The notes beneath the pieces were generated by a model. It searched no databases, had not been told where the DNA came from, and saw only the letters and a program-made list of their open reading frames with translations. Source: a virus. From it: DNA of 21,604 bases. Below are positions 7,432 to 21,604 of the stretch, piece by piece; the stretch's first letter is position 1, and each line of letters begins with the position of its first letter. Where the stretch lies: positions 1 to 21,604 of the IMG/VR virus record IMGVR_UViG_3300046009_007703. One strand, given 5' to 3'. A program made the position numbers and the translations under genes.

Positions 7432-8511
7432 TTAAAATTTACTATTTATATAACTTAAAGCATTTTCAATTATATTATGCATATCATAGTATTTATACTC
7501 AGCTAATCTCCCGCCAAAATGAACATTTGGAAGTTCATCTGCCAAACTTTTATACTTTTTATATTTTTCAGTATTTTCAACATCATTTACAGGATATAAA
7601 GGTTCGGATATCTCCGTGTACTCTATTGGAAACTCATGAGTTATCCATGTAGAATCTATTTTTTTATAATCGAAATGATTATGTTCTATAATTCTTGTGT
7701 AAGGTATATCTACATCTGTATAGTTTATCATTGCTGTTCCTTGAAAATCCGCAAGATGTACTTGAGTATGTTGAAATTTAGTTGTTTTATACTCCAATAA
7801 TCCATATTTATAATCAAAAAATTTATCAATAGCACCTGTATATATCACATTTTTATGCGGAGGTAATTCTGAATTAAAATAATCAGTATCTAGGATAACA
7901 TCTATATTTTCTAACAATTTTTCAAAAATTTGAGTGTATCCTCCTATAGGTATGCCTTGATATATGTCATTAAAATAATTGTTGTCATATGTAAATCTTA
8001 CAGGTAATCTTTCTATTATTTCTTTAGGTAATTCTGTAGCTTTCTTTCTCCACTGCTTTTCAGTATATCCTTTTATTAATGCTTCGTATACATCTGTTCC
8101 TACTAGTTTGATAGCTTGTTCTTCTAAATTTGTTGGATTATCTATGTGCTTTGATTGTATTCTAATAATCTCTTTTACTATGCTTGGTGAAGCATCTCCC
8201 CAAAATTTTGTAAAAGTCCACATATTAAAAGGTAATGAATATATTTCATTCTTGTAAGATGCTACAGGTCTTAGTGTAAAATTATTAAATTCAACGAATT
8301 GATTTATCCATTCCCAAACTTTTTTGTTTGAGGTATGGAATATGTGAGGGCCGTATTCATGAACATGCACACCATCTCTATTTGATGTATAGCAATTCCC
8401 GCCTATATGACTTCTCTTATCTATTACACGTACTTTGTAACCTTTTTTATTTAGCTCGTATGCACATATAGAACCGTAAAATCCTGAACCTACTATTAGA
8501 TAATCTATCAT
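7432..8511 (-). CDS. glf: UDP-galactopyranose mutase
   Basis: This flavoenzyme interconverts UDP-galactopyranose and UDP-galactofuranose, the donor for galactofuranose-containing glycans. Its 359 residues are close to bacterial Glf length (about 365-390). The FAD-binding Rossmann motif GSGFYG is at 8-13, followed by RSHIGGNCYT (33-42) and GPHIFHT (54-60). The family signature GYTEKQW is at 148-154. The substrate/flavin region RFTYDNNYFNDIYQGIP lies at about 172-188. YTRIIEHNHF and the C-terminal GRLAEYKYYDM carry the conserved arginines. All expected motifs are present, so the enzyme is likely active. It is the last gene of a four-gene sugar cassette, starting 17 nt after the GT25 gene. It is unusual within a phage structural block. 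Confidence 0.95.
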   Translation of the reverse strand: MIDYLIVGSGFYGSICAYELNKKGYKVRVIDKRSHIGGNCYTSNRDGVHVHEYGPHIFHTSNKKVWEWINQFVEFNNFTLRPVASYKNEIYSLPFNMWTFTKFWGDASPSIVKEIIRIQSKHIDNPTNLEEQAIKLVGTDVYEALIKGYTEKQWRKKATELPKEIIERLPVRFTYDNNYFNDIYQGIPIGGYTQIFEKLLENIDVILDTDYFNSELPPHKNVIYTGAIDKFFDYKYGLLEYKTTKFQHTQVHLADFQGTAMINYTDVDIPYTRIIEHNHFDYKKIDSTWITHEFPIEYTEISEPLYPVNDVENTEKYKKYKSLADELPNVHFGGRLAEYKYYDMHNIIENALSYINSKF

Positions 8512-8528
8512 AAGATATTTTTAAAAAA

Positions 8529-9221
8529 TTAAAAAAGTATATTTATTTTTTTATCATAATTAGATATCCAATAATCTTCACATAAACCTCCATAATTATG
8601 CCATCCTATATCATTCATAACTCCACATCTTTGAATAACTGCCATAGGATATGCTAAATACTTTTCAACATATTTGGTAGTTAAATATATATCAAAATAA
8701 TTTTCATTTTCGTAATCATTTATTATTTTATCAAATATTATACTATTTATTAACACGGCATGAGTTCCTATTGCCTCAACTACTTTAATCAAATTAAAAT
8801 TAATTAAATTAAATTCAGTTTGTGCTTTACCTGGGTCTGCCCCTAAATAAAATATCTCCCAATTTGGTATATGCTTTAATTGGTTAATAGAATTTTCTAC
8901 AACATGTATAGGATTGTAACCACCTTCAGTATAGAATTTTGCATCATCTTCAAATATTAATACATTTGATAATTTTCTAAACTTAGCTTCTTTTATTATA
9001 TCTACATGTGTATACAAACATGACCTTGTATATGACATAGGGTCATATTTTCCATTATCCAATATTTTATAGCCTAAATCGGGAGGACTAATAGCAGATT
9101 TTCTTTTCACATACTTAAGTATTCCTAAATCTTTAAAATGATTTTCTATTATATCTCTCTTATCTCTTCTATGTTCTAAGTTTATATAATAAGCATCATC
9201 AATAAAATTAAATAATTTCAT
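8529..9221 (-). CDS. Glycosyltransferase family 25 protein (LPS/collagen galactosyltransferase-like)
   Basis: GT25 enzymes include bacterial LPS galactosyl- or glucosyltransferases and the animal/mimiviral collagen galactosyltransferases. This 230-residue protein shows the family opening DDAYYINLEHRRDKRDIIENHF (8-29), then SCLYTHVDIIKEA (67-79), a metal-binding EDD (91-93, in VLIFEDDAKF), and a GTHAVLINSIIFDKII segment (about 152-167). The C-terminus is short compared with some members, with WHNYGGLCEDYW near the end. Its ATG overlaps the stop of the upstream glycosyltransferase (ATGA, 4 nt), so translation is probably coupled. The sugar donor and acceptor are not readable from sequence. The neighbouring mutase makes UDP-galactofuranose a plausible product pool. 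Confidence 0.85.
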   Translation of the reverse strand: MKLFNFIDDAYYINLEHRRDKRDIIENHFKDLGILKYVKRKSAISPPDLGYKILDNGKYDPMSYTRSCLYTHVDIIKEAKFRKLSNVLIFEDDAKFYTEGGYNPIHVVENSINQLKHIPNWEIFYLGADPGKAQTEFNLINFNLIKVVEAIGTHAVLINSIIFDKIINDYENENYFDIYLTTKYVEKYLAYPMAVIQRCGVMNDIGWHNYGGLCEDYWISNYDKKINILF

Positions 9222-10402
9222 ATTACTAAATTTTTAATATAATTTAACCACATATTTCCTATAGTTTCTAATTTATATTTTGAAGTAATATAATTATAAC
9301 CATTATCTTTAACAAGATTTTTAACTTGTGGGTTCTGTTCTAAATAATGAATCATATGTACAATATTTTCATCTATTTTAAACTTACCATCTAAATCTTT
9401 AGTTAATGGTTCATTTTGTACAGTTTCTAAATTAAAACCTACAGGAAGTTGTAACCATTGACAATAGTCTTTATAATTGTCATACAATGCCCCTAAAGGG
9501 TATGTAATTACTGTTACACCTAGAGCTATAGCTTCAGCGACTACACATGAGAACGTATCTTTATGAACATCTTGATATGGTGTATACAGTGGATATATGA
9601 AATATTCACTCTCAGCTAAGTGCTTAAATAATGTTTTTTTGTCTACTCCATCATGTTTATAAAAGAATTTTGCATCATTACTAGGTATTGTTATCAAGTA
9701 ATCAAATGCATGAAATTCCTTATCTTCATAAGTAAGTTTATCAATGGCTGAGTAAGCTATGTCTCCTCCTCTTGCCCAAGATGCGTGGAATATAAACTTA
9801 TGAGGTTTTTTAATTGGTTTTTCTTTTAATATCTCGTCTACTATCTCATCCATTATTGGGTTAGGTATTGTTTCTATTTTTACAGATTCTTCCCCCAAAT
9901 TTTCTTGTATGGTTCTCGATACATTTCCTGTCATTTTTTTCTCCCAATCAGATATATGTACAATACCTAAATTTAGATTATGTTTTTTTACATAGTTCAC
10001 TATACTATCAATACCATATATCCATTGCATATGTGACCAATATATCAAAGAATTACTAACAGATATTGGTAATAAATCATAATTCTCAAACCAAAGCATA
10101 CTAATTAGTATATCAAATTTTTTATTTGATATACCATCAAAATTTAAATTAGTATAAGATACTCCATTATAATGATATCCATAATCATAATTTATTTCTG
10201 ATTTTCTATATTCATCTTTTAATTCAGGTTCTAAATCATCAGTAGCAACTACTATCTGATTTCCAAATTTACTTAAATATTCAGCAATTAATATAACACT
10301 TGTATCAGTACCTGAACAACTACCTCCTCCATATCTCATAGTATAACCATTAACATAGTTACTTCTACGACTGTTACCTATAGTAATGAATGCTATTCTC
10401 AT
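9218..10402 (-). CDS. GT-B fold glycosyltransferase, GT4-like
   Basis: This 394-residue protein has two Rossmann-like halves typical of GT-B transferases. The N-terminal strand MRIAFITIGNSR is followed by a glycine-rich acceptor-side loop (YGGGSCSGTD, 24-33). A mid-protein TIPNPI (178-183) links the domains. The donor domain starts with HKFIFHASWARGGD (201-214), and the C-terminal VAEAIALGVTVITYPLG (288-304) is the GT4-type nucleotide-sugar motif with Glu290. No signal peptide or membrane segment is seen, so it is probably cytoplasmic. It overlaps both neighbours by 4 nt (ATGA), placing three transferases in one tightly coupled unit. Sugar specificity is unknown. Confidence 0.8.
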   Translation of the reverse strand: MRIAFITIGNSRRSNYVNGYTMRYGGGSCSGTDTSVILIAEYLSKFGNQIVVATDDLEPELKDEYRKSEINYDYGYHYNGVSYTNLNFDGISNKKFDILISMLWFENYDLLPISVSNSLIYWSHMQWIYGIDSIVNYVKKHNLNLGIVHISDWEKKMTGNVSRTIQENLGEESVKIETIPNPIMDEIVDEILKEKPIKKPHKFIFHASWARGGDIAYSAIDKLTYEDKEFHAFDYLITIPSNDAKFFYKHDGVDKKTLFKHLAESEYFIYPLYTPYQDVHKDTFSCVVAEAIALGVTVITYPLGALYDNYKDYCQWLQLPVGFNLETVQNEPLTKDLDGKFKIDENIVHMIHYLEQNPQVKNLVKDNGYNYITSKYKLETIGNMWLNYIKNLVI

Positions 10403-11655
10403 ACAAATAATTTTTCATATCTTTCACTCCAACCTAAATCTTCATCATATAAATACATTACTATTTTTTTAGGTTCTTTAATACCATTCATAGTAACTTC
10501 ATAAAAATTTGTTTTTAAATTTATGTAAGTATCATCTAATAAATCTATTCTATATAATTCTTCTGTATCTGAATGAACACCTAGTGTTAGAAATTTTGGT
10601 TTAGTAAAATTAAAATTTCTAAAGAATTCTAAATCCCATATGCAATCTAAGGTATACTCTTTACTTTTGAAGTCTTCTTCCCAAGAAATTGGATTTGGAG
10701 GTTCTTTAACATCTAAGGTATATCTTTGTATTAAACATTCTTTAAATTTGAATCCACCGTAAATTTCATAATCTTCTAAAGTTCTCTGCTTTCCAATTCC
10801 GTATTTCTCATCTATTGTTATACCATAATCTTCTTGACCAAATAGTTGTCTTGTTTTATTCCTAGAGAACATATCTCTTTGAGTACTCGTATACTCTGTT
10901 TGTGAAACTTCTCCATGGTCTTCCCAATGTTTAGGTCTATAACTTCTTGTATATTCGTGCCACATAATCATTCTATATGGACTGTAAAAATCATAACCAT
11001 TGGTAAAAGCTCTTAAACTTAATGTAGTTTCTTCAGTATACCCTCCAAAATATATTTCAGGGTCATATGGAACATCTTTTATAAATTTACCATATGTAAA
11101 ATAAAAATGACCACTTATAGTTCTTGCTCTTATAATATTATGTCTACTTTCGTAATCTTGTATATACCAAGGCATACTCATCAGAAGTTTATCACTACTG
11201 AATTCATATTGAGACATTAAACATGGAATTTTTATATACTCACTTTCGTCAGTATTAGGGTCGAATGGAGTACAATATGTTGTTATTATTGGATTTTCTG
11301 AATAATTTAAAGCTTCCTTAAAATCTTCTAGTAATATTGAATCCCAATTTTTAACAAATCTGTGATGGGAATCTATCTGTAAAGTATATAATTCACCATC
11401 ATAAAGTTCATTTGTTATATTTCTTGCCCAACCCAATCCTTTACTTTCAGAGTAATGATGTTTTGATATTCTAAAATTTTTCTTATTATCATAATATGAT
11501 ATGTCTTCATCATCCCCATGCTGCCAACATATCCCAAAAATTAAATTATTAGGATTTTTAGCTTTAGCTAACATATCATCTATTGTAGGTATTAATTGCA
11601 AATCTCGGTAACTTGCAATCTGCACAAATATTTTTGGAGAATGTACGCTTTTCAT
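10399..11655 (-). CDS. GlcNAc-transferase-like glycosyltransferase (Skp1/mucin GT60-type domain)
   Basis: Residues 8-240 match the pattern of the GT60 family. That family includes Dictyostelium Skp1 GlcNAc transferase and polypeptide alpha-GlcNAc transferases of protists. Visible marks are KIFVQIASYRD (8-18) with PTIDDMLAKAKNP (23-35), IFGICWQ (39-45), and the metal-binding Asp-Ser-His in LQIDSHHRFVKNWD (92-105, Asp95/His97). A conserved YFGGYTEETTLSLRAFTNGYDFYSP (202-226) and WHEYTR (232-237) follow. The remaining 180 residues form an extra region ending in a beta-rich stretch (about 325-418) of unknown role. The family modifies proteins on Thr or hydroxyproline. The gene directly follows the Thr-Pro-repeat protein, with a 43-nt gap holding a promoter-like box. 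Confidence 0.75.
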   Translation of the reverse strand: MKSVHSPKIFVQIASYRDLQLIPTIDDMLAKAKNPNNLIFGICWQHGDDEDISYYDNKKNFRISKHHYSESKGLGWARNITNELYDGELYTLQIDSHHRFVKNWDSILLEDFKEALNYSENPIITTYCTPFDPNTDESEYIKIPCLMSQYEFSSDKLLMSMPWYIQDYESRHNIIRARTISGHFYFTYGKFIKDVPYDPEIYFGGYTEETTLSLRAFTNGYDFYSPYRMIMWHEYTRSYRPKHWEDHGEVSQTEYTSTQRDMFSRNKTRQLFGQEDYGITIDEKYGIGKQRTLEDYEIYGGFKFKECLIQRYTLDVKEPPNPISWEEDFKSKEYTLDCIWDLEFFRNFNFTKPKFLTLGVHSDTEELYRIDLLDDTYINLKTNFYEVTMNGIKEPKKIVMYLYDEDLGWSERYEKLFV

Positions 11656-11669
11656 TAAAACTTTTTATT

Positions 11670-11679
11670 TACAAATATA
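11670..11679 (-). promoter_or_regulatory. Candidate promoter box TATATTTGTA before the glycosylation genes
   Basis: A minus-strand TATATTTGTA lies in the largest gap of the window (43 nt), 14 nt before the ATG of the GlcNAc-transferase-like gene. It contains TATATTTG, which fits the Bacteroidetes -7 consensus TAnnTTTG. It differs by one base from boxes at 7411-7420 and 1804-1813. I see no good -33 TTG at the usual distance, so this is a candidate only. Confidence 0.4.
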
Positions 11680-11698
11680 CATAAATTAATTCATACAT

Positions 11699-12670
11699 TT
11701 AAGAACCACCTCCACCACCTGTACAATCAATACAGTCAAAATCACCATCACAATTTATTGATGTAGGACTTACTTCTATTGTACCACTGTTGACAGATGG
11801 AGTATTTCCATAGGTTACACATTTACAAATAGTATCTCCTATATCTACATTAGTTTGTGTAGAACCTATTCCACATCCATCATAAGACACATTTCCAACT
11901 GATGCACCTACGTTCTCAAAAGTCCAACAAGTACAACTTGGTGTAGGTGTTGGTGTTGGCGTAGCTGTTGGTGGTACAGGTGTTGGTGTAGCAGTAGGTG
12001 TAGGTGTAACCGTTGGTGGTATAGGTGTAGGTGTAGCAGTAGGTGTAGGTGTAGCCGTTGGTGTAGCCGTTGGTGTAGCAGTAGGTGTGGGTGTAGCCGT
12101 TGGTGTAGGTGTAACCGTTGGTGGTATAGGTGTAGGTGTAGCCGTTGGTGTAGCAGTAGGTGTGGGTGTAGCCGTTGGTGTAGCAGTAGGTGTTGGTGTT
12201 GGTGTAGCCGTTGGTGTTGCTGTAGGTGTAGGCGTAGGATATCCACAAGCAATTGAATTGTATTCAATACCTATAACTTCTTGATATGTTCCACAAGAGC
12301 CGTTAGCATACACGGCATATGTATATAAATCATAAACAACACATGATTGATATGTTCCCAAGAATGTTCCATATGAAGGACATGGAGTTGGCGTAGGTGT
12401 CGGTGTTGGTGTAGCAGTAGGTGTGGGTGTTGGTGTAGCCGTTACAAATGGATAATTTCTAAACTGCTCTGTATTAAATACATCTACTATAGGATTTGTA
12501 ATAGTTCCTGCATATGTTGGGTCAAAATATGCAGCTACAGATTGTGATATTAATTGATTAAAATTATTTATACCTGATACAGCTCCTCCATGAGAGTATA
12601 TAGCTCCTGCTATAGTAGTAGGATTTAATATACCAAACATATTAAATGAACCTGATATCGGAACTGTCAT
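11699..12670 (-). CDS. Mucin-like Thr-Pro-repeat virion protein with two Cys-containing modules
   Basis: This 323-residue protein has four parts. Residues 1-76 form a globular N-terminal module ending [10 protein letters not shown], a form I associate with phage tail or decoration proteins. A short Thr-Pro linker (77-97) follows. A Cys-containing module (97-144) has [14 protein letters not shown] and EYNSIACGY, resembling small domains repeated in phage fibre proteins. A long run of [10 protein letters not shown] units (145-244) then leads to a C-terminal Cys-rich module (about 245-318) ending in a Gly5-Ser tail. No signal peptide or catalytic motif is present. The gene starts one nucleotide after the collagen-like fibre gene, so a fibre-tip or decoration role is likely but inferred. 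The dense Thr-Pro sequence is a typical substrate for mucin-type O-glycosylation, and transferase genes follow directly. The repeats extend and rewrite easily, so length may vary among relatives. Confidence 0.65.
11940..12236 (-). repeat. Minisatellite encoding the long Thr-Pro/Ala repeat
   Basis: A tandem array of 6-nt-based units (plus-strand ggtgta, ggtgtt and gccgtt) is combined into 12-, 18- and 30-nt higher-order repeats. It stays in frame and encodes PTPTATPTP-like sequence. A longer motif with Ile/Val-Pro-Pro-Thr-Val breaks recurs two to three times. Frame is kept throughout, so selection on the protein repeat is likely. A smaller array of the same type is at about 12380-12440. Confidence 0.85.
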
Positions 12671-12671
12671 A

Positions 12672-15575
12672 TTATTTTAATCTTTCTTCTATACAATTTA
12701 TCTTGTTAGAAAGTTCAATTATAGCACTATGCAAATATGCCATTATAGCTCTATCTCGTATTGTTAAATAACCATCTTCTCTCTCTGATATTACATAAGG
12801 TATTGCATTTAGTACTTCTTGAGCGATAAATCCTGCATCTTTATATCCATTCTTTATGTAACTATATGAATTAAATTTTCTTAATATTTCTAAGCTTCCT
12901 GATAATTCTTTAATATCACTTTTAAGTCTTCTATCTGAAGTAGTTATAAAATTGTCAGCAGTTACAAATTGACTTGTTTGTATGTTGCCTGAGAATGTAG
13001 CTGTTACACCTGTTGCATTACCCGCAGTATATGATGTATTAATTTGACCTAACCTAGTTATTAAATTAGCTACTGATACGTCTACATCAGTACTTGAGCC
13101 CTGCGCTCCTGCTGTACCTTGTAAACCTGTAGGCCCTTGATTACCTTGAGCTCCCATTATTCCTTGTAATCCAAATCCTGTGAATCCTTGAAATCCTTGA
13201 GTTCCCTGCCTTCCTTGGAATCCTTGTGTGCCAATTGTACCTTGTATACCTTGGTCACCTTGAGTTCCTACAGTGCCTTGTAGACCCATTGTTCCTTGAG
13301 TACCTTGGTTACCTTGAGCTCCCTGTGTACCCTGTAAACCCGTTGTTCCTTGAAATCCTTGAGTTCCCTGCCTTCCTTGGAATCCTTGTGTGCCAATTGT
13401 ACCTTGTATACCTTGGTCACCTTGAGTTCCTACAGTGCCTTGTAAACCTGTTGTTCCTTGAGCTCCTGCTGTACCCTGTAAACCTGTTATACCTTGATTT
13501 CCTTGATTTCCTTGAGCTCCTTGAGTTCCTTGAGTTCCTTGCCTTCCTTGGAATCCTTGCACACCTTGAAATCCTTGAAATCCTTGCACACCTTGAACTC
13601 CTTGTGAGCCTAATCCAATAATTACTCCTCTTAGAGTTGAACTACTATTTATTGTATTTATAAGTAATTTCTCATCTAAGGTTGAATTACTGTTAAGTGT
13701 TATGCTTTGTGTAGTTATATTTAAATTTGTGGGATTACCATTTTTACCTATAAAGTCAACTACAAAAACATATTCTTCATCTATCTTATTTACAGGTAAA
13801 TTATCTAATGGAATCATCACACAGAATTCCTTTGGAGAATTACCTGACGGTGATGACGGTTCTACTTTCATACTTGAGAAATCCCAAATACCTGTATTCA
13901 ATACTAGTGATAACTTTATTTTATCAGAATCTGATGCTGCTGTGAAGAAATATTCTAAATTATCTTGTCTTTCTCCATTGCCACCCTCTAGGGTATCTAT
14001 TAATGTGCCGAAGGAGTTGGATGTGTCACCTCCCTCCTCGATTGATGGGCCGTTTATGAATATCTGAGCAGTTGGTTTTTTCTTTGTTGCATCATATTTT
14101 GAAAATGCATTCAATGATATCTTATACTTAGTTCCTGCCTTAGCTGAACCTAAGAATTGGTCTTTAACTGATAATGCTGTTACATTTGATTCAGCTAATG
14201 GTGATTCAAAACTTATAGCATTTGTTACATTTGTACTACTCTGTACGGGGTTTGGTACTGATAGTCCTCCACTTGCTAATTCAAAGTTATAGTTATCAAA
14301 TGAATTAGAATTTGCATTAGTATTTACTTTGTATTCATTGTAATTAAAATAGTTTGAGATGTCATTACTTGATGTGACTTCTCCCACACTTTTGTAGTCT
14401 ATACCTAATTTAGGGTCAAATGTATAACTCCCCGTATCTTGCATCTTGTTTGGAGGCATAACATCAAAATCACCTATAAACATAGGTGCTCCAATTGAAC
14501 CAACAGGCTTTGCAGATACTTTTACCTTATCAATAACTCCATTGGATGTTGCTACATTGTCAAAACACATTTTAGCATATCCTGTAACTTTTTGACCCTC
14601 GGATGTCTTTACATTTTTATTATAATTTATAGAATATATATCTGATACAAATGAATCAACAACAAATTTAGTTGTATTACTTGTTATATTATGGAAAAAT
14701 AAATTATCAACAACGATAGTTGTTGAGTTTACTACTTCTAATATATTACCTACATATTCTGAAACAGAACCTATTTGAGACTGCAAATTAGGTGGAACTC
14801 TATCGATTACTATTGGAGTAGCTGTTATAGTTCCTCCAACCATATCTGATATGAATTCAGCTACCGTGCTAACTATTGTAGGATTTCCTTCAGTTGATAC
14901 ACTAGAACTTATACCCGTTGCAGATGATTGCTCTTCTACTTTTGATATTGAAGTGTTATTTATATTAGATATAACTGATGGTTTATTTAAAATATTATTA
15001 GATGTTGTACTTGACTGAATTATTGGAAAATATGTTAGCTTCCCTGTACCTGATTTTGTGGAAGGTCTATCTGTGGACTTATCCCTATATGATATATCTA
15101 TAGGCGTTATTCTAACAGATATATCTTTTGGATTTTTCTCGAATACTATATCATCAGGATTATTAGGTGTCTTAAATTCCTCTACAGCAGTATTTATTTG
15201 AGTCAATCCTCTCCATATTAAGTTCTGTCTTGATTGGTCTAGTGCTCTTAAGGTATCAACATCCCTAGATGCCTTACCTAATATTATTAGCTTTCCTGTA
15301 CCTTTTGTTACAGTATCTTTTATGTCAATATGTAATATTATACTGCCACCTGAAGTTACTTGGTTTGTATATTCTACAGGAATATTTTTACCACTCCTAT
15401 CTAATAACTCTACAGAAATACTAGAACCTGCTACTATTATTGGGTCAGGAGATAATGTGATAGTATTTTTACCTTTTTTTAATACCGTAAAATTTCTTGA
15501 TACATTAAAGTATTTTAATGAATAAGTATCTCCATCCCATCTCGCACCGTTTTTTACATACGATTCTAAACCCAT
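12672..15575 (-). CDS. Large tail-fibre-like protein: collagen-like stalk plus C-terminal S74 self-cleaving chaperone
   Basis: The 967-residue protein has three zones. Residues 1-650 are beta-rich virion-type sequence. The opening ([40 protein letters not shown]) is like tail-fibre or baseplate proteins of T4-like marine phages. Residues about 653-828 are an uninterrupted-style collagen-like stalk of Gly-X-Gln/Gly-X-Y triplets ([13 protein letters not shown] type). The C-terminal 88 residues form an S74-type intramolecular chaperone. Its SDRRLK motif (Ser880-Lys885) is the predicted self-cleavage site, so the tip would be released after trimer folding. DAGFIAQEV and [16 protein letters not shown] are further family marks. 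The gene starts 28 nt after the primase stop and is followed by the Thr-Pro protein. A receptor-binding or side-fibre role is inferred. Confidence 0.85.
13085..13618 (-). repeat. Collagen-like triplet repeat region
   Basis: About 175 codons of Gly-X-Y with Gln favoured at the third position (written as plus-strand ttg/cct-rich units). Inside it a 98-nt stretch at 13185-13282 recurs without mismatch at 13347-13444, a 162-nt (54-codon, 18-triplet) offset. This shows recent expansion by unequal recombination or slippage. Frame is preserved. Confidence 0.9.
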
Positions 15576-15611: not shown

Positions 15612-16530
15612 TAATCTTTGAAAACAGTTTATATCTATAAATATCATTTTCAGTAACTATATTGCTATTATTTATATATTCCCATACATTTTTAGTTCCT
15701 AATGAAGATGGGTCTTCTCCTACAGGCATATTAACAAAGTATGGATTCTTTCCAACATCTAAAACATATTTTGCTATTTTCAATATGGAATCTAATTCTC
15801 CACCATCTAATGCTATATAAAAATTTTGGCAAGATGAACTAACAATCCTCTCCTTTACCTTATCATTAAGAAATTTTCCAAATAAAGGTATAGCATTTCT
15901 CTTTACTGCAATCGCATCAAAAATACCTTCCACAATAACTATATCATGACTCCAATCTATTATAGATTCTAAAAATACTTTATCTTTAGAGCATTTAGGA
16001 TTGTTATACTTATTAGTTACTATATTTTTAGATATGTAATAGTTTAAATTAAAAGAACTATCATAACTTGGTATAACTATGCTATCAGTAGTGTTATCTT
16101 CTGCGTATCCTATATTATACTTTATGATATCATCATCTGATACATTTCTCGATTTCAAATAATTTCGTAATCTGTTAGTATAGAAATTATCAATACATTT
16201 ATCAAATGGAATAAAATTACTAGGTAAGCTTACATTTTCATCAGTGCTCTTCTCAAATCTAACATTAGTATTTTCTAATTTAGAAATCTTTGCAATATCG
16301 CTGCTTTCAGCAGATACTTTACGTAACAATTTAGTTAGGGTGTTACCACTTGACTTGCATACCCAACAATTCCATAGCCCACTGCTTAACTCAATCTCTA
16401 GTTTCTTTTTGTGATGATTACAGAATGGACATGCAAGTGCTACATTCGTAGAACTCCTAGGTGAATAATCACCTAAATATTTACTAACTATTCGGAGCTT
16501 TTCTGTTTGCTCCATGGTGTAACTGCTCAT
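15604..16530 (-). CDS. DNA primase: zinc-ribbon plus TOPRIM domain, T4 gp61-like
   Basis: Primases lay RNA primers for replication. This 308-residue protein (T4 gp61 has 342) shows an N-terminal zinc ribbon with Cys34-x2-Cys37 (ACPFCNHH) and Cys55-x2-Cys58 (WNCWVCKSSGN). An RNAP-basic/TOPRIM core follows. It has Glu201 in IVIVEGIFDAIAV, the acidic ALDGGELD (240-247, Asp242 and Asp247), and GEDPSSLG (271-278). Residues 112-146 carry the common RNYLKSRNVSDDDIIKYNIGYA linker. No helicase domain is fused and no helicase gene is in view. Its ATG overlaps the GIY-YIG-like gene by 4 nt (ATGA), so the two are translationally coupled. An internal Met6 is an alternative start, but the ATGA overlap supports the longer form. 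Confidence 0.85.
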   Translation of the reverse strand: MSSYTMEQTEKLRIVSKYLGDYSPRSSTNVALACPFCNHHKKKLEIELSSGLWNCWVCKSSGNTLTKLLRKVSAESSDIAKISKLENTNVRFEKSTDENVSLPSNFIPFDKCIDNFYTNRLRNYLKSRNVSDDDIIKYNIGYAEDNTTDSIVIPSYDSSFNLNYYISKNIVTNKYNNPKCSKDKVFLESIIDWSHDIVIVEGIFDAIAVKRNAIPLFGKFLNDKVKERIVSSSCQNFYIALDGGELDSILKIAKYVLDVGKNPYFVNMPVGEDPSSLGTKNVWEYINNSNIVTENDIYRYKLFSKINM

Positions 16531-16934
16531 ATTCGACCTTTATAAAACTTTCCTAATATGTTAATGTTCAGATAATTATCTTTCTCTAAAACTTCTCTTA
16601 TAAATTGATACTTCGTTTCCAAGTATGTCAATTCAATTTTGGAATAGGCAAATATAAGTATTTCTCTTTTAAATTCAGAATGTTTTTTTTCTTTTAGTAG
16701 ATTTTTTATTACATCATTAGAACCGTAATAGCTAATCCAATTTGATTCCTTTTCTACTAATCTCTTTTTCTTTGTTCCTTTTAATGGTGGTAACTTCCTA
16801 TGGTATTTTATAACCTTTTTACCAATATACTTTTTATTTGTAGGAGTGTGAGTAACTTCATATATAAATCCATATACGTCTTCATTCGGCATATCTGATA
16901 CCGTTTTTATTTCTTTACCCTCGAATATCCACAT
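16527..16934 (-). CDS. GIY-YIG-like endonuclease
   Basis: This 135-residue protein has the GIY-YIG fold signature in variant form: GFIYEVT (22-28) as the GIY strand and KKYIGKKV (34-41) as the YIG strand. A Trp/Tyr block follows (NWISYYGSNDVIKNLL, 65-80), then a helix with the catalytic-type Glu106 (TYLETKYQFIREVL) and the closing NYLNINI (120-126). It lacks any DNA-binding C-terminal extension of the I-TevI kind, so it resembles stand-alone phage Seg-type or repair nucleases. It is coupled to the primase gene by an ATGA overlap. Homing, repair or host-DNA attack are all possible. The basic patch KYHRKLPPLKGTKKKR (43-58) may contact DNA. Confidence 0.75.
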   Translation of the reverse strand: MWIFEGKEIKTVSDMPNEDVYGFIYEVTHTPTNKKYIGKKVIKYHRKLPPLKGTKKKRLVEKESNWISYYGSNDVIKNLLKEKKHSEFKREILIFAYSKIELTYLETKYQFIREVLEKDNYLNINILGKFYKGRI

Positions 16935-17794: not shown

Positions 17795-20017
17795 TTATCT
17801 ATATTTTTTCTCTGCATTACTTAGCTTTAAATTATTACTTATTTTAAATTTAACTATAGCATTTTTTAATTGTTCAGGAGCTCCGTTAAATGCATCTTCT
17901 TCAATATCTAAATTACCATTTTCTTCAAATACTTTATTAAGAAAGTAATACATTATATCGTCACTTACATATTTATAATTTTCGTCAGCTATAGAATTAC
18001 CACTATCTATAAGATTAGTAAAATGTTTATCTAATTGTTCCTTACTCATTAATTCATACTCATAATCATTAAGTTCATATTCAGAATTTGACCTATTATC
18101 TATATATTCTGATTTTTGTTTAGGAGTTAAAAATTCAAATTCATTTATAGTTAATGCGTCAAATTTACTAAGTTTGAAAGTAATGTCTTTTTCTTTTTGC
18201 TTAGGTGTTGCTGCATCAAATTCGTGTTCTCCTAATCTTTTATTATCTTTTAATATTAAATCAATATACTTTTCTTTTTGTTTAGGTGTTGCTATTCTAA
18301 ATTCTCTGTCTTTCAGTTCTCGTTTAATATTTGAATATTTAGATATTATAGTATCAATATATATTTCTTTTTGCTTAGGAGTTGCTATTTCTAACTCAGG
18401 AGTCGATAGACCATACATATTATCTAATAGATTATCAATTTTTTTATCTAATAGATAATCAATATATTTTTCTTTTGCGTTACCCTTCAAATACTTAACA
18501 AATTCATCAGGCCAATATCTATCATTTTTAATCACTATATCAAGATACTTTAATTGTTGTTTTTCTGTTGCTGCTACTGTTTCATATCCTTTCAATCTTA
18601 TATCTCCATCATTTTCAGCTAATTCTAATACAGAATCTATATATTTTTCTTTTTGATTGTCTGTTGCTTCTTTAAATTCATCTCTACTTAATTTTACTTT
18701 TGTGTTTATCATAATATCTATATGCTTTTCTCTTTGTTCAGGAGTTGCTATCTTCAATTCATAATCTTCTAAACTATTATTATTGTTCATTCTAATATTT
18801 AGATATTTTTGTTGTTGTTCAGGAGTTGCCTCGTCAAGCATATATCTTGGTAACTTTAATTCATTATCTATTACAAAATTTATTATATATACTTTAGAAT
18901 CTTTAGGTGCTCCTTTATATTCAAAGTCTTTTATATACTTTGATTTACTTAAAATCATTTTTATATATTCTTTTTTTTGACTCTGCGATGCAAATGCATA
19001 CTGAAAGTCAAATAGTCTAATCTCTTCTTTTATTAATCTATCGATATATTGTCTTTTATTTTCTAAAGGAAGTGATACGAATTCTGATTTAGATAATCCT
19101 TCTTTATCTTCATCTTTTAATTTTTTTAATGCTCTTGTTCTTATGGTCTCTTTTCCCTCAATTTCACCTCTTTGACTATCTTTGTATAAACATCCTAATC
19201 TTTCATAGCTTCCCGACAACTTTTGTGTTTTTTCCATGTAGTCATCTACCTCATCCATAAATTTTTCAGAATTGGATATTTTACCATAAGTTTTAAGTTC
19301 AGCATATAATACTACGTCTTCTTTATTTTCTGTGTTTATATATGGTTTTATTAAAACTCTTCCTAATGGTTTTTTTAAATTAGTGTCACTAATTGTAGTG
19401 AGATAACATATTATTGAACCTTCTTTTAAATCTAATTTTACATAATGTCTATTGCTTCCTTTAATAACATTCATACAACTGTCCCAATAAGAATCTCTAT
19501 CTGTAGACATTCCTATGATATCATACTTAGCACTTGAAAATACTATCATCAAGTCCTCATCTTTATTTGTAGCACCTTTACCTTTGATAGCTGCATATCT
19601 ATCTAAAAGTTCTTTAGCATCAGGTTCTTTTTTTGATATTTTGTTGAGTGCTTTACCTATTGCTATCTCTTTGTTACTTTTAGTATCTAATGCTACTCCA
19701 TCTTTGTAGTTTTTTATAGAAAAGTCGTAAGGTTCTAATATAGATTGTATTTCAAATTCAGTGGAGTCTTCTGCATATGGAAATGCTATTCTGTATCCAC
19801 GTTTATCAAGTTGACGTGCATTTGGTAATGATTTGAGTTTACTGAATACTTGTTTGATTCTTGTTTCTGCTTCAGGACTTCTTTCTATAGTCATGTATTC
19901 TTTAGCTACTGAGTATGGAACTGCTTCAGTAAGTTTGACATAGTCATATGCTTCAGTGAGTACGTTTAGTATACTTTTTAAGTATATGTCTGTATTTGTA
20001 TGTTTAATCTTTATCAT
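17795..20017 (-). CDS. Repeat protein: conserved N-terminal domain plus about 15 helical 27-residue repeats (downstream paralog)
   Basis: This protein of 740 residues starts from the ATG at 20017-20015. A TTG nine codons upstream is also open, but it overlaps the previous gene more deeply and has no better context. Residues 1-307 form a domain I do not recognise. It contains GMSTDRDSYWDSCMNV (about 169-184), an RHYVKLDLKEGSIICYL strand pair, and KPLGRVLIKPYINT (about 216-229). From about residue 308 to the end run roughly 15 tandem 27-residue units, consensus Leu-x3-Glu-Phe-x2-Ala-Thr-Pro-x-Gln-Lys-Glu-Lys-Tyr-Ile-Asp, predicted as helix pairs (an alpha-solenoid). No signal peptide or membrane segment is seen. 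The start overlaps the stop of its upstream paralog by 14 nt. A binding or scaffold function is inferred from the repeats. Confidence 0.7.
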   Translation of the reverse strand: MIKIKHTNTDIYLKSILNVLTEAYDYVKLTEAVPYSVAKEYMTIERSPEAETRIKQVFSKLKSLPNARQLDKRGYRIAFPYAEDSTEFEIQSILEPYDFSIKNYKDGVALDTKSNKEIAIGKALNKISKKEPDAKELLDRYAAIKGKGATNKDEDLMIVFSSAKYDIIGMSTDRDSYWDSCMNVIKGSNRHYVKLDLKEGSIICYLTTISDTNLKKPLGRVLIKPYINTENKEDVVLYAELKTYGKISNSEKFMDEVDDYMEKTQKLSGSYERLGCLYKDSQRGEIEGKETIRTRALKKLKDEDKEGLSKSEFVSLPLENKRQYIDRLIKEEIRLFDFQYAFASQSQKKEYIKMILSKSKYIKDFEYKGAPKDSKVYIINFVIDNELKLPRYMLDEATPEQQQKYLNIRMNNNNSLEDYELKIATPEQREKHIDIMINTKVKLSRDEFKEATDNQKEKYIDSVLELAENDGDIRLKGYETVAATEKQQLKYLDIVIKNDRYWPDEFVKYLKGNAKEKYIDYLLDKKIDNLLDNMYGLSTPELEIATPKQKEIYIDTIISKYSNIKRELKDREFRIATPKQKEKYIDLILKDNKRLGEHEFDAATPKQKEKDITFKLSKFDALTINEFEFLTPKQKSEYIDNRSNSEYELNDYEYELMSKEQLDKHFTNLIDSGNSIADENYKYVSDDIMYYFLNKVFEENGNLDIEEDAFNGAPEQLKNAIVKFKISNNLKLSNAEKKYR
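19201..19392 (-). repeat. Direct repeat A (near-identical to 21413-21604)
   Basis: This segment matches 21413-21604 at a fixed offset of 2212 nt, with 10 mismatches in 192 nt and no indels. The last 89 nt are identical. It encodes the end of the conserved N-terminal domain of the two paralogs. The downstream repeat arrays are much more divergent, which indicates recent duplication or gene conversion limited to the head segment. Confidence 0.9.
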
Positions 20018-21604
20018 ATTCTTGGTATCTTTCTTTTTGTTCAAGAGTTGCTTCTATATATTCAAAAGAGTTTAATTGTTCCTTGTTATTTATTTTTTTT
20101 TCAATATACTTTTCTTTTTGTTCAGGAGTAGCATCTTTAAACATATCATAACTCAAAATCATATCATATTTTACTGAATAATTTCTAATTATCCAATTAA
20201 TATATTTTTCTTTTTGTTCTTTTGTTGCATATTCAAATTCGTATTTTTGTAATTTATAACCATTTTTTAATTTTATATCAATATATTTTTCTTTTTGTTC
20301 AGGAGTTGCTAAATCTAATTCATAATCAAACAAATTTTTATTATTTTCTATTTTAGAAATAATATATTTTTCTTTTTGTTCTTTTGTTGCTGCATCGTAT
20401 TCATGACTTTGTAAACTTTTGAAGAAAAAATCATCCAATTTTAAATTAATATACTTTTCTATTTGTTCATCAGTCATATATTTAAAGTCAGTTGATGAAA
20501 GTCCCCAATAACTTTCTGATTTTATATTTAAATATTCTGTTCTTGCTTCATTAGATAACAATTCTATTTCACTATCATATAAAGAATCATTCCTAAGAAT
20601 TAACTTAACATATTTTATTTGTTGTTTTGGAGTAGCTATTCTAAGTTCATAGTCTTTTAATCTTTCATTACTGTCTATTAAACCATCAATATATTTTTCT
20701 TTTAAATTTTGTGGCATATACTTAAAATAAGACTCAATAATTCTATATCCTCTTTCTATAATAATATTATAATGTTTTTCTTTTTGTTTTTCTGTTGCTA
20801 TATCAAGTTCGTAGTCTTCTAACGTATTGTATATTATACTATCAATATACTTTTCTTTTAAATTTTGTGACATATACTCAAATGAATACTTATTGAGTCT
20901 TTTTCCGTTTCTTATAACTACATTATAATATTTTTCTCGTTGCTCTTCTGTTGCTAACTTAAGTTCATTGTTGTATAAAAAATTTTCATTTTCTATTTTA
21001 TTATCTAAATGTTTTCCTCTTTGCTCAGGAGTAGCTGCTCTATATTCAGAGTCTTCTAATTCTATACGATTATCTAATTTATAATCTATTATTTCTTTTT
21101 TTGAATCTTTAGGTGCTCCATTAAATAAAAAAGGATATATTCTCATTTTATTTTTAATATGAATTTTTATAATATTTTTCTTTTGACTCTGTGATGCGTA
21201 TGAATACTTAATGGGAAATATAAAACCATCTAACTCTAAATTATTTTTAATAAAATCATCTATACTCTTTCTTTTTATTTCTAATGGAAGTGATACGAAT
21301 TCTGAATCTTCTAGTTCTTCACCATTTTCAAACTTTTTTAATGCTCTTGTTCTTATGGTCTCTTTCCCTTCTATGGTATCTCTATCACTATCATCATATA
21401 AACATCCTAATCTTTCATATCTTCCCGACAACTTTTGTGTTTTTTCCATGTAGTCATCTACTTCATCCATAAATTTTTCAGAATTTGGTATAGAACCGTA
21501 AGTTTTTAGTTCAGGATATAATACTACGTCTTCTTTATTTTCTGTGTTTATATATGGTTTTATTAAAACTCTTCCTAATGGTTTTTTTAAATTAGTGTCA
21601 CTAA
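20004..21604 (-). CDS. Repeat protein, upstream paralog (N-terminus cut by window edge)
   Basis: The reading frame is open from the right edge to a TAA at 20006-20004. The Met at 21470 is internal, because 44 further codons upstream (SDTNLKKPLGRVLIKPY onward) continue the same domain as the downstream paralog. At least 532 residues are visible. The first 96 visible residues match the second half of the paralog's N-terminal domain closely. About 16 tandem 27-residue helical units follow (consensus YEL-x2-ATPEQKEKYID). The first three units share the paralog's SLPLE, ASQSQKK and GAPKDSK variants. Later units differ. Its stop overlaps the next gene. Function is unknown. Confidence 0.7.
   Translation of the reverse strand, partial: SDTNLKKPLGRVLIKPYINTENKEDVVLYPELKTYGSIPNSEKFMDEVDDYMEKTQKLSGRYERLGCLYDDSDRDTIEGKETIRTRALKKFENGEELEDSEFVSLPLEIKRKSIDDFIKNNLELDGFIFPIKYSYASQSQKKNIIKIHIKNKMRIYPFLFNGAPKDSKKEIIDYKLDNRIELEDSEYRAATPEQRGKHLDNKIENENFLYNNELKLATEEQREKYYNVVIRNGKRLNKYSFEYMSQNLKEKYIDSIIYNTLEDYELDIATEKQKEKHYNIIIERGYRIIESYFKYMPQNLKEKYIDGLIDSNERLKDYELRIATPKQQIKYVKLILRNDSLYDSEIELLSNEARTEYLNIKSESYWGLSSTDFKYMTDEQIEKYINLKLDDFFFKSLQSHEYDAATKEQKEKYIISKIENNKNLFDYELDLATPEQKEKYIDIKLKNGYKLQKYEFEYATKEQKEKYINWIIRNYSVKYDMILSYDMFKDATPEQKEKYIEKKINNKEQLNSFEYIEATLEQKERYQEYDKD
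21413..21604 (-). repeat. Direct repeat B (near-identical to 19201-19392)
   Basis: This is the partner of direct repeat A, with 182 of 192 positions identical by hand alignment. The match runs to the very edge of the window, so the true repeat is probably longer. Confidence 0.9.

What the first reader, a model, noticed from the sequence alone, without database searches (positions are those of the whole stretch)
7432..12670. Possible virion glycosylation system: mucin-like Thr-Pro protein followed by GT60-like, GT4-like and GT25 transferases and UDP-galactopyranose mutase
Seen: a 323-residue Thr-Pro-repeat protein is followed directly by four sugar genes, three of them ATGA-coupled, all inside a structural block. 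Known: GT60 enzymes add GlcNAc to Thr (protist mucins) or hydroxyproline. Trypanosoma cruzi mucins carry alpha-GlcNAc-Thr cores that may bear galactofuranose, whose donor is made by the mutase. Inference: the phage may build a galactofuranose-containing O-glycan on its own Thr-Pro protein. I know of no described phage system with this exact combination.
Basis: partly seen in the sequence, partly recalled or inferred. Interest (0 to 1): 0.8.

Follow-up and report, generated by a model that had tools for sequence, protein, structure and literature searches.

The report
Phage gene cassette for mucin-like glycosylation
A bacteriophage carries, directly behind a gene for a threonine-proline-repeat protein, a set of sugar enzymes led by a relative of the enzymes that start mucin glycosylation in protists and animals, so the phage probably sugar-coats its own particle; the same pairing recurs in many other phages.

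Summary
A 323-aa Thr-Pro protein is followed by PF11397/GT60-like, GT4-like and GT25-like transferases and a UDP-galactopyranose mutase, near terminase and portal genes. The GT60-like model (pLDDT 94) matches mucin-type polypeptide GalNAc-transferases best (Z 22; first other row 17). In 80 viral loci with this enzyme (49 clusters), a Thr-Pro gene lies directly upstream in 20 of 48 testable clusters (shuffles: mean 4.4, maximum 11). PF11397 occurs in 11 of 80 records with the Thr-Pro pattern and 0 of 78 reversed-pattern records. Of 12 jumbo isolates, the 2 with PF11397 are the 2 with Thr-Pro tracts; one, XacN1, has at least two glycoproteins by its authors' proteomics. One upstream Thr-Pro protein is crAss-muzzle-like. 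Best explanation: a phage-encoded, stepwise, mucin-type O-glycosylation system acting on Thr-Pro virion proteins, with variable outer genes (GT10, GT11, methyl-, carbamoyl-, sulfotransferase). The galactofuranose part is less secure: glf and GT25 are not always present. Against it: 69 of 80 Thr-Pro records show no PF11397, and some cassettes have no visible Thr-Pro gene. No activity is shown for this phage.

The parts
12672..15575 (-). 967-aa tail-fibre-like protein: collagen repeats and C-terminal S74 chaperone domain; gene directly upstream of the Thr-Pro gene; alternative acceptor
   Evidence: PF01391 1.9e-25, PF13884 3.3e-10; PHROG tail fibre
11699..12670 (-). 323-aa Thr-Pro-repeat protein, proposed acceptor (mucin-like virion protein)
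   Evidence: no family match except phrog_15511 at 0.003 over the repeat region
12387..12439 (-). first Thr-Pro tract
   Evidence: tandem repeat rows; translation
11938..12238 (-). main Thr-Pro tract; whole-protein length differs between near-identical relatives (323, 289, 270, 395 aa)
   Evidence: lengths
10399..11655 (-). GT60-like polypeptide alpha-HexNAc transferase, proposed initiating enzyme; invariant D95-S96-H97 and H233
   Evidence: PF11397 1.6e-58; alignment; model and fold matches
9218..10402 (-). GT4-like glycosyltransferase, proposed second sugar
   Evidence: phrog_2170; model pLDDT 92.4 and PimA/MshA/BshA matches; present in 41 of 41 close loci that extend past GT60
8529..9221 (-). 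GT25-like glycosyltransferase, variable outer enzyme; absent at this place in L002-L004
   Evidence: PF01755 below cut-off; invariant E91-D92-D93 in 21 sequences; gene maps and junction alignment for L002, L003
7432..8511 (-). UDP-galactopyranose mutase (glf), proposed source of UDP-galactofuranose
   Evidence: TIGR00031 above cut-off; UDP-galactopyranose mutase chains in PDB

Best explanation
The segment is a phage-encoded mucin-type O-glycosylation cassette. In the infected cell the GT60-like enzyme transfers a HexNAc (probably alpha-GlcNAc) from a UDP-sugar to threonines in the Thr-Pro tracts of the virion protein encoded just upstream. The GT4-like enzyme, conserved with it in close relatives, adds the next sugar. 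GT25-like and other exchangeable enzymes add outer sugars or decorations. glf converts UDP-galactopyranose to UDP-galactofuranose for one of them. The result would be a stiff, sugar-coated projection on the virion. Shown by sequence and model: gene content, order, family of the first enzyme, its ppGalNAc-transferase-like fold and invariant DxH motif, and the recurring pairing with Thr-Pro genes. Inferred: donor, linkage, sugar order, acceptor sites, location on the particle, and purpose (shielding, stability or adhesion).
For: Family and fold: PF11397. Of 50 Foldseek rows shown, 49 are ppGalNAc-transferases. VIA Z 22.3 over 277 residues; the first row outside that family is 17.3. D95, S96, H97 and H233 are invariant in 43 sequences. 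Gene order: Thr-Pro gene directly upstream in 20 of 48 clusters, downstream in 2; shuffles mean 4.4, SD 1.9, max 11 in 2000. GT4 partner in 41 of 41 close loci extending past GT60. Genome level: PF11397 in 11 of 80 Thr-Pro-pattern records against 0 of 78 reversed-pattern records, Fisher p 7e-4; the control records hold fewer bases (2.75 against 3.87 million), and at equal rate 7.8 would be expected. Of 12 jumbo isolates, PF11397 in 2 and the (Thr-Pro)3 pattern in the same 2. XacN1, one of these, has 'at least two glycoproteins' by proteomics, which its authors suggest may be made by the phage transferases ORF328 and ORF334; ORF334 is the PF11397 protein. The Thr-Pro protein upstream of GT60 in L072 has crAss muzzle domains. 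Outer cassette genes include typical glycan decorators: GT10, GT11, methyl-, carbamoyl- and sulfotransferases. No lipid-carrier transferase or flippase was recognised among the window proteins and the 20 partner genes scanned.
Against: 69 of 80 records with the Thr-Pro pattern show no PF11397, so most of these Thr-Pro proteins are not demonstrably paired with it, though many records are short fragments (median 30 kb). Of 15 records picked because no Thr-Pro gene had been flagged beside the cassette, 6 have no (Thr-Pro)3 pattern anywhere in the record, including one of 136 kb. In 28 of 48 testable clusters no Thr-Pro gene was counted directly upstream. In L014 the upstream gene looks like a fibre by eye (not tested), in L040 a fibre relative lies three genes upstream. 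The GT4-like partner was not found in the 37 more distant loci, so the core is not one fixed operon. XacN1's glycoproteins were not named in the text I could read, and its GT60 gene is not beside its Thr-Pro genes. The GT4-like and GT25-like proteins have hydropathy maxima of 1.72 and 1.59, about the usual membrane-segment limit (recalled), so solubility is likely but not shown. No activity was measured, and this window's Thr-Pro protein has no proven place in the virion.
Confidence: 0.7

Rival explanations
1. The cassette glycosylates a virion protein other than the Thr-Pro protein, such as the neighbouring collagen/S74 fibre (Thr in Gly-X-Y triplets) or the capsid.
For: The collagen fibre gene is directly upstream of the Thr-Pro gene. 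GT25-type enzymes include procollagen galactosyltransferase, which is only a very weak match (E 0.55-0.81). In L014 a 685-aa protein that looks like a fibre by eye lies directly upstream of the cassette; in L040 a 2230-aa relative of the window's fibre lies three genes upstream.
Against: By a simple Gly-X-Y scan, collagen repeats near the cassette were flagged only in L002, L003, L004 and L006 of the 43 close loci, while Thr-Pro genes recur upstream across distant GT60 clusters.
Confidence: 0.12
2. The cassette changes host surface polysaccharide (LPS, capsule), for example to block superinfection; closeness to the Thr-Pro gene reflects a shared variable slot.
For: glf, GT25 and GT4 enzymes are common in polysaccharide loci (established knowledge). 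In L012, L013, L015, L016 and L019 the cassette has opposite-strand genes on either side. A partner gene in L070 matches Caps_synth (62.5 bits) besides Gly_transf_sug (105.2 bits).
Against: The initiating enzyme has a polypeptide-HexNAc-transferase fold. No lipid-carrier initiating transferase or flippase was recognised among the proteins scanned. The order Thr-Pro gene then GT60 is directional, 20 against 2.
Confidence: 0.1
3. The Thr-Pro tract is only a flexible linker of a variable fibre, and fibre genes and sugar genes share a recombination hotspot without a functional tie.
For: The Thr-Pro protein varies in length among near-identical phages, and the GT25 slot is also variable. 69 of 80 Thr-Pro records show no PF11397. 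My shuffle test does not allow for a shared fibre region.
Against: Genome-level co-occurrence also holds where the genes are far apart, as in the jumbo isolates. In bacterial loci too, 9 of 75 have a Thr-Pro gene beside PF11397 (shuffle mean 3.4, maximum 9).
Confidence: 0.05
4. The enzymes glucosylate phage DNA, as T4 alpha- and beta-glucosyltransferases do.
For: Phage glycosyltransferases often act on DNA (established knowledge); an alpha-glucosyltransferase bound to DNA (1y6f) appears at rank 49 for the GT4-like model.
Against: GT60 fold; no hydroxymethyl-pyrimidine synthesis gene was recognised among the window proteins scanned, but the window is a fragment; glf and fucosyl-type partners would be unusual for DNA (inference).
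Confidence: 0.03

Closest known systems
Mucin-type O-glycosylation of Trypanosoma cruzi and Dictyostelium (polypeptide alpha-GlcNAc transferases; CAZy GT60)
   Same: PF11397-type first enzyme; Thr-rich acceptor with Pro nearby; in T. cruzi Core 2 the GlcNAc carries beta-galactofuranose (PMC3769586, passages read); the Dictyostelium GT60 enzyme is described as related to polypeptide GalNAc transferases (PMC3188802, passage read)
   Different: Those work in the Golgi of eukaryotes; here the genes are in a phage and would work in bacterial cytoplasm
Mycobacteriophage virion glycosylation (Freeman et al. 2023, not held; described in PMC12619734, passage read)
   Same: Glycans on phage structural proteins (capsid, tail tube); phage-encoded transferases there are recalled
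   Different: There the C-termini of capsid and tail tube subunits; the passage mentions no GT60 or Thr-Pro system
Xanthomonas phage XacN1 (PMC5852040, passages and outline read)
   Same: Carries a PF11397 enzyme (ORF334) and Thr-Pro proteins (ORF180, 190, 232-237); at least two glycoproteins reported from its proteomic analysis
   Different: Enzyme gene not adjacent to Thr-Pro genes; next gene is a carbamoyltransferase; in the passages read the authors do not connect ORF334 to GT60 or to Thr-Pro tracts

Membership tests
PF11397 / GT60 polypeptide alpha-GlcNAc transferase | Profile match over the curated cut-off | tested here: met
   199 bits against 21
PF11397 / GT60 polypeptide alpha-GlcNAc transferase | GT-A fold close to ppGalNAc transferases, with a DxH metal motif (motif role recalled) | tested here: met
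   Z 22.3; D95-S96-H97 and H233 invariant in 43 sequences. Residues were not superposed; a sequence profile found no PDB chain at E up to 10
PF11397 / GT60 polypeptide alpha-GlcNAc transferase | Transfer of alpha-GlcNAc to Thr/Ser or hydroxyproline | not testable with these tools
   needs enzyme assay
Mucin-type acceptor | Long Thr/Ser-Pro-rich tandem repeat | tested here: met
Mucin-type acceptor | Dense O-glycans on the repeat | not testable with these tools
   needs glycopeptide mass spectrometry
UDP-galactopyranose mutase | Equivalog profile over cut-off | tested here: met
   TIGR00031 379.7 against 303.75 bits; closest PDB chain 4mo2 E 5.4e-136
GT25 | PF01755 over cut-off | tested here: inconclusive
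   window protein 19.5 against 24 bits; relatives L028 35.7 and L023 24.4 bits pass
GT4 | GT4 enzymes as nearest solved structures | tested here: met
   Foldseek: PimA 5.8e-12, MshA 9.9e-12, BshA further down; the GT4 label and GT-B fold of those enzymes are recalled
Phage-encoded virion glycosylation | Glycan present on virion protein | not testable with these tools
   only indirect: XacN1 report

The most novel reading that the evidence does not exclude
Thr-Pro tracts in phage virion proteins, and in some bacterial injection-type structural proteins such as VgrG-like spikes, are prokaryotic mucin domains served by a dedicated, widespread GT60-led O-glycosylation system whose outer glycan genes are swapped between near-identical phages; the mucin-type initiating enzymes of protists and animals belong to the same wider family.
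Probability: 0.45. Interest if true: 0.9.

Novelty: new variant of a known kind. Interest (0 to 1): 0.78.

Why it matters
Phage particles are usually treated as unglycosylated protein. A dedicated mucin-type system, with a recognisable acceptor and variable outer sugars, would explain Thr-Pro repeat proteins of many environmental phages. It would give a genome signature for glycosylated virions and offer prokaryotic enzymes related to mucin initiation for study.

Tried and rejected
Collagen fibre as the main partner: by a simple Gly-X-Y scan, collagen repeats near the cassette were flagged only in L002, L003, L004 and L006 of 43 close loci, so not general. Thr-Pro proteins as a strict marker of GT60: rejected, 69 of 80 pattern records show no PF11397.

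A first split of those 80 into Thr-Pro-coding and not (9 of 50 against 2 of 30 with PF11397) was not informative: my first ORF filter missed Thr-Pro frames. A recount found 75 of 80 with the repeat in an open stretch of at least 100 aa, so I used the reversed-pattern records as control instead.

Sequence search of PDB with GT60, GT4 and GT25 gave no useful hit; a profile of the 43 GT60 sequences gave none up to E 10. PHROGs gave nothing for three genes upstream of the Thr-Pro gene in L017 and for the 1503-aa gene in L033; of six Thr-Pro proteins scanned, four (L033, L030, L054, L045) matched only phrog_15511 (unknown function) and two (L017, L029) nothing. Papers: no paper in the library holds GT60, glycosyltransferase and phage together, nor threonine-proline, phage and glycosyltransferase. 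Four hold bacteriophage and TPTPTP, none about phage proteins by title. Other searches. Only listings were seen except for PMC12619734, PMC5852040, PMC3769586 and PMC3188802, of which passages were read. Supplementary files could not be read, so XacN1 Fig. S4 was not seen.
Full report
What is there. The window is an IMG/VR virus record of 21,604 bases, with the genes discussed on the minus strand. In transcription order: primase-like gene (PHROG DNA primase), collagen/S74 fibre, the 323-aa Thr-Pro protein, GT60-like, GT4-like, GT25-like, glf, four further genes, terminase, portal. The terminase is 53% identical to that of Microcystis phage Mel-JY01 and 50% to those of Flavobacterium immuto phages.

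The first enzyme. PF11397 matches at 1.6e-58. An alignment of 43 sequences (32-76% identity to the window's) keeps D95, S96, H97, H98, W104, E208, E209, R215 and H233 invariant. The model (pLDDT 94.4) finds ppGalNAc transferases in 49 of the 50 Foldseek rows shown. VIA gives Z 22.3 (277 residues, 3.5 A) for GalNAc-T2; the first row outside that family is 17.3. From memory, D-S-H is also the metal motif of GalNAc-T2 and a later His the third ligand; the residues were not superposed here. A 2011 paper says that the Dictyostelium GT60 enzyme is related to the polypeptide GalNAc transferases (PMC3188802, passage). So a polypeptide HexNAc transferase is the best reading; activity is not shown.

The partner. 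80 viral loci carry a relative (the best 80 of 85 found); they form 49 clusters at 85% identity. One has the gene at the edge. Of the other 48, 30 have a Thr-Pro-rich ORF somewhere in the locus. In 20 it is directly upstream (one small ORF may intervene), in 2 directly downstream. Moving the Thr-Pro genes at random among genes of at least 150 aa gives 4.4 upstream on average, at most 11 in 2000 shuffles. This null does not allow for a shared fibre region. The pairing reaches GT60 relatives at 34-42% identity (L045, L050, L060, L070, L072; in L060 and L070 a 147-aa ORF intervenes). In L072 the upstream 1573-aa Thr-Pro protein has crAss muzzle domains (PF25731 2.6e-13, PF25729 4.7e-8), a virion tail protein in crAss-like phages (recalled).

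Genome-level tests. PF11397 is in 11 of 80 of their records (9 of 50, 2 of 30). The same pattern reversed gave 80 listed loci, of which 78 new ones were searched: 0 of 78; Fisher p 7e-4. The control records are shorter (median 17 against 30 kb; 2.75 against 3.87 million bases); at equal rate per base 7.8 would be expected. For records of at least 100 kb it is 7 of 12 against 0 of 5, p 0.04. Of 12 jumbo isolates (two with the enzyme and ten that I picked from the DNA-polymerase relatives of XacN1), PF11397 is in 2, and the (Thr-Pro)3 pattern in the same 2, with 19 and 29 matches and 0 in the ten others; RAS14 was left out as a third carrier with the same match values as CM1. These sets are not corrected for phage relatedness. 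Of 15 GT60 records picked because no Thr-Pro gene had been flagged next to the cassette, 9 have the pattern somewhere and 6 not; this group includes L010, whose adjacent Thr-Pro protein fell under my threshold, and L036, where the enzyme is at the edge.

An isolate with glycoproteins. In a search of 50,697 phage records with three GT60 queries, only Stenotrophomonas phages CM1 and RAS14 and Xanthomonas phage XacN1 matched. XacN1 ORF334 is the PF11397 protein (260.8 bits), followed by a carbamoyltransferase and, further on, a HtrL_YibB-like protein. Such genes occur in metagenomic cassettes as well: a carbamoyltransferase in L053 and a HtrL_YibB-like protein in L045. XacN1 ORF180, ORF190 and ORF232-237 carry Thr-Pro tracts. 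[quoted passage not shown] they name ORF328 and ORF334 (PMC5852040, passages). The main text does not contain any ORF number from 230 to 239, and the figure with the glycoproteins was not available to me.

The rest of the cassette. Of 43 close loci (L002-L044), 41 extend past GT60 and all 41 have the GT4-like gene; glf is in 34 and GT25 in 27 of 43. None of the 37 more distant loci had a GT4-like match by the same search. The GT4-like model resembles PimA, MshA and BshA. Other genes in the slot: GT11, GT10, two kinds of methyltransferase, a PLOD-type transferase, a sulfotransferase, a carbamoyltransferase (20 partner genes scanned, 7 without a match; one, in L070, matches capsule-synthesis and sugar-transferase models). 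This is what a glycan with a fixed base and a variable end would need. The window's near-identical relatives L002-L004 lack GT25, so GT4 runs straight into glf (junctions of L002 and L003 aligned). L220 has a different 266-aa gene there and L005 three genes. The Thr-Pro protein is 323, 289, 270 and 395 aa in window, L002, L003 and L004, with nearly identical flanking domains. Because glf stays when GT25 is gone, the galactofuranosyl transferase may be the GT4-like enzyme or an unknown one; I do not assign it.

Origin of the block. Five have cassette genes: four of the window's own clade (L217, L219, L220, L228) and L279. Three of these show the Thr-Pro gene; L220 is cut inside GT60. The other 41 show neither cassette nor Thr-Pro gene in the stretch held. 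In the clade of the window the two came together or were kept together; L279, which lies in the same contig as L040, has the cassette without a Thr-Pro gene nearby and without the pattern in its 136-kb record.

Bacteria. 77 bacterial loci carry the enzyme. In 75 testable ones a Thr-Pro gene lies in the locus in 13 and next to the enzyme in 9, against 3.4 expected and at most 9 in 2000 shuffles; gene calls in these often G+C-rich stretches are rough. Some of these contigs may be phage (L317 and L365 have gene maps like L060 and L070; inference). In Trinickia L311 a VgrG-like spike (PF05954 7.9e-88) ends in a long Thr-Pro run, three genes from the enzyme.

Judgement. The protein-glycosylation reading rests on three lines: enzyme fold, gene order, and genome co-occurrence, with an isolate reported to have glycoproteins. 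The weak points are that most Thr-Pro records examined show no such enzyme, some cassettes lack a visible Thr-Pro gene, and nothing has been measured for this phage. The sugar identities are inference from T. cruzi, whose mucins start with alpha-GlcNAc-Thr and may carry galactofuranose (PMC3769586, passages).

Noticed in passing
window 17795-21470: Two neighbouring, overlapping ORFs (749 and 488 aa) share a module and short repeats of the type ATPEQKEKYID (by eye); no Pfam or PHROG match for the larger one.
   Followed up: no
window 16527-16934: SegE-like GIY-YIG homing endonuclease (PF19835 6.1e-28) beside the primase gene.
   Followed up: no
L311 14640-16988 (Trinickia), also L334, L324, L357: Proteins with long C-terminal Thr-Pro or PPTE repeats two to three genes from PF11397 enzymes; L311 is VgrG-like by Pfam (PF05954, PF22178), L324 and L334 by similar N-termini only, L357 not read. 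Possibly glycosylated secretion spikes.
   Followed up: partly
L316, L323, L371: Proteins of about 1200 aa with an internal Thr-Pro-rich tract directly upstream of PF11397 in Sphingomonas and another proteobacterial MAG; L316 has an Rv2525c-like hydrolase domain.
   Followed up: partly
L390 38049-47105 (XacN1 ORF232-237): Six neighbouring proteins with similar N-termini (by eye), each with a Thr-Pro tract.
   Followed up: partly
L059, L061-L064, L066-L068, L071: Two GT60-like genes in tandem in one cassette.
   Followed up: no
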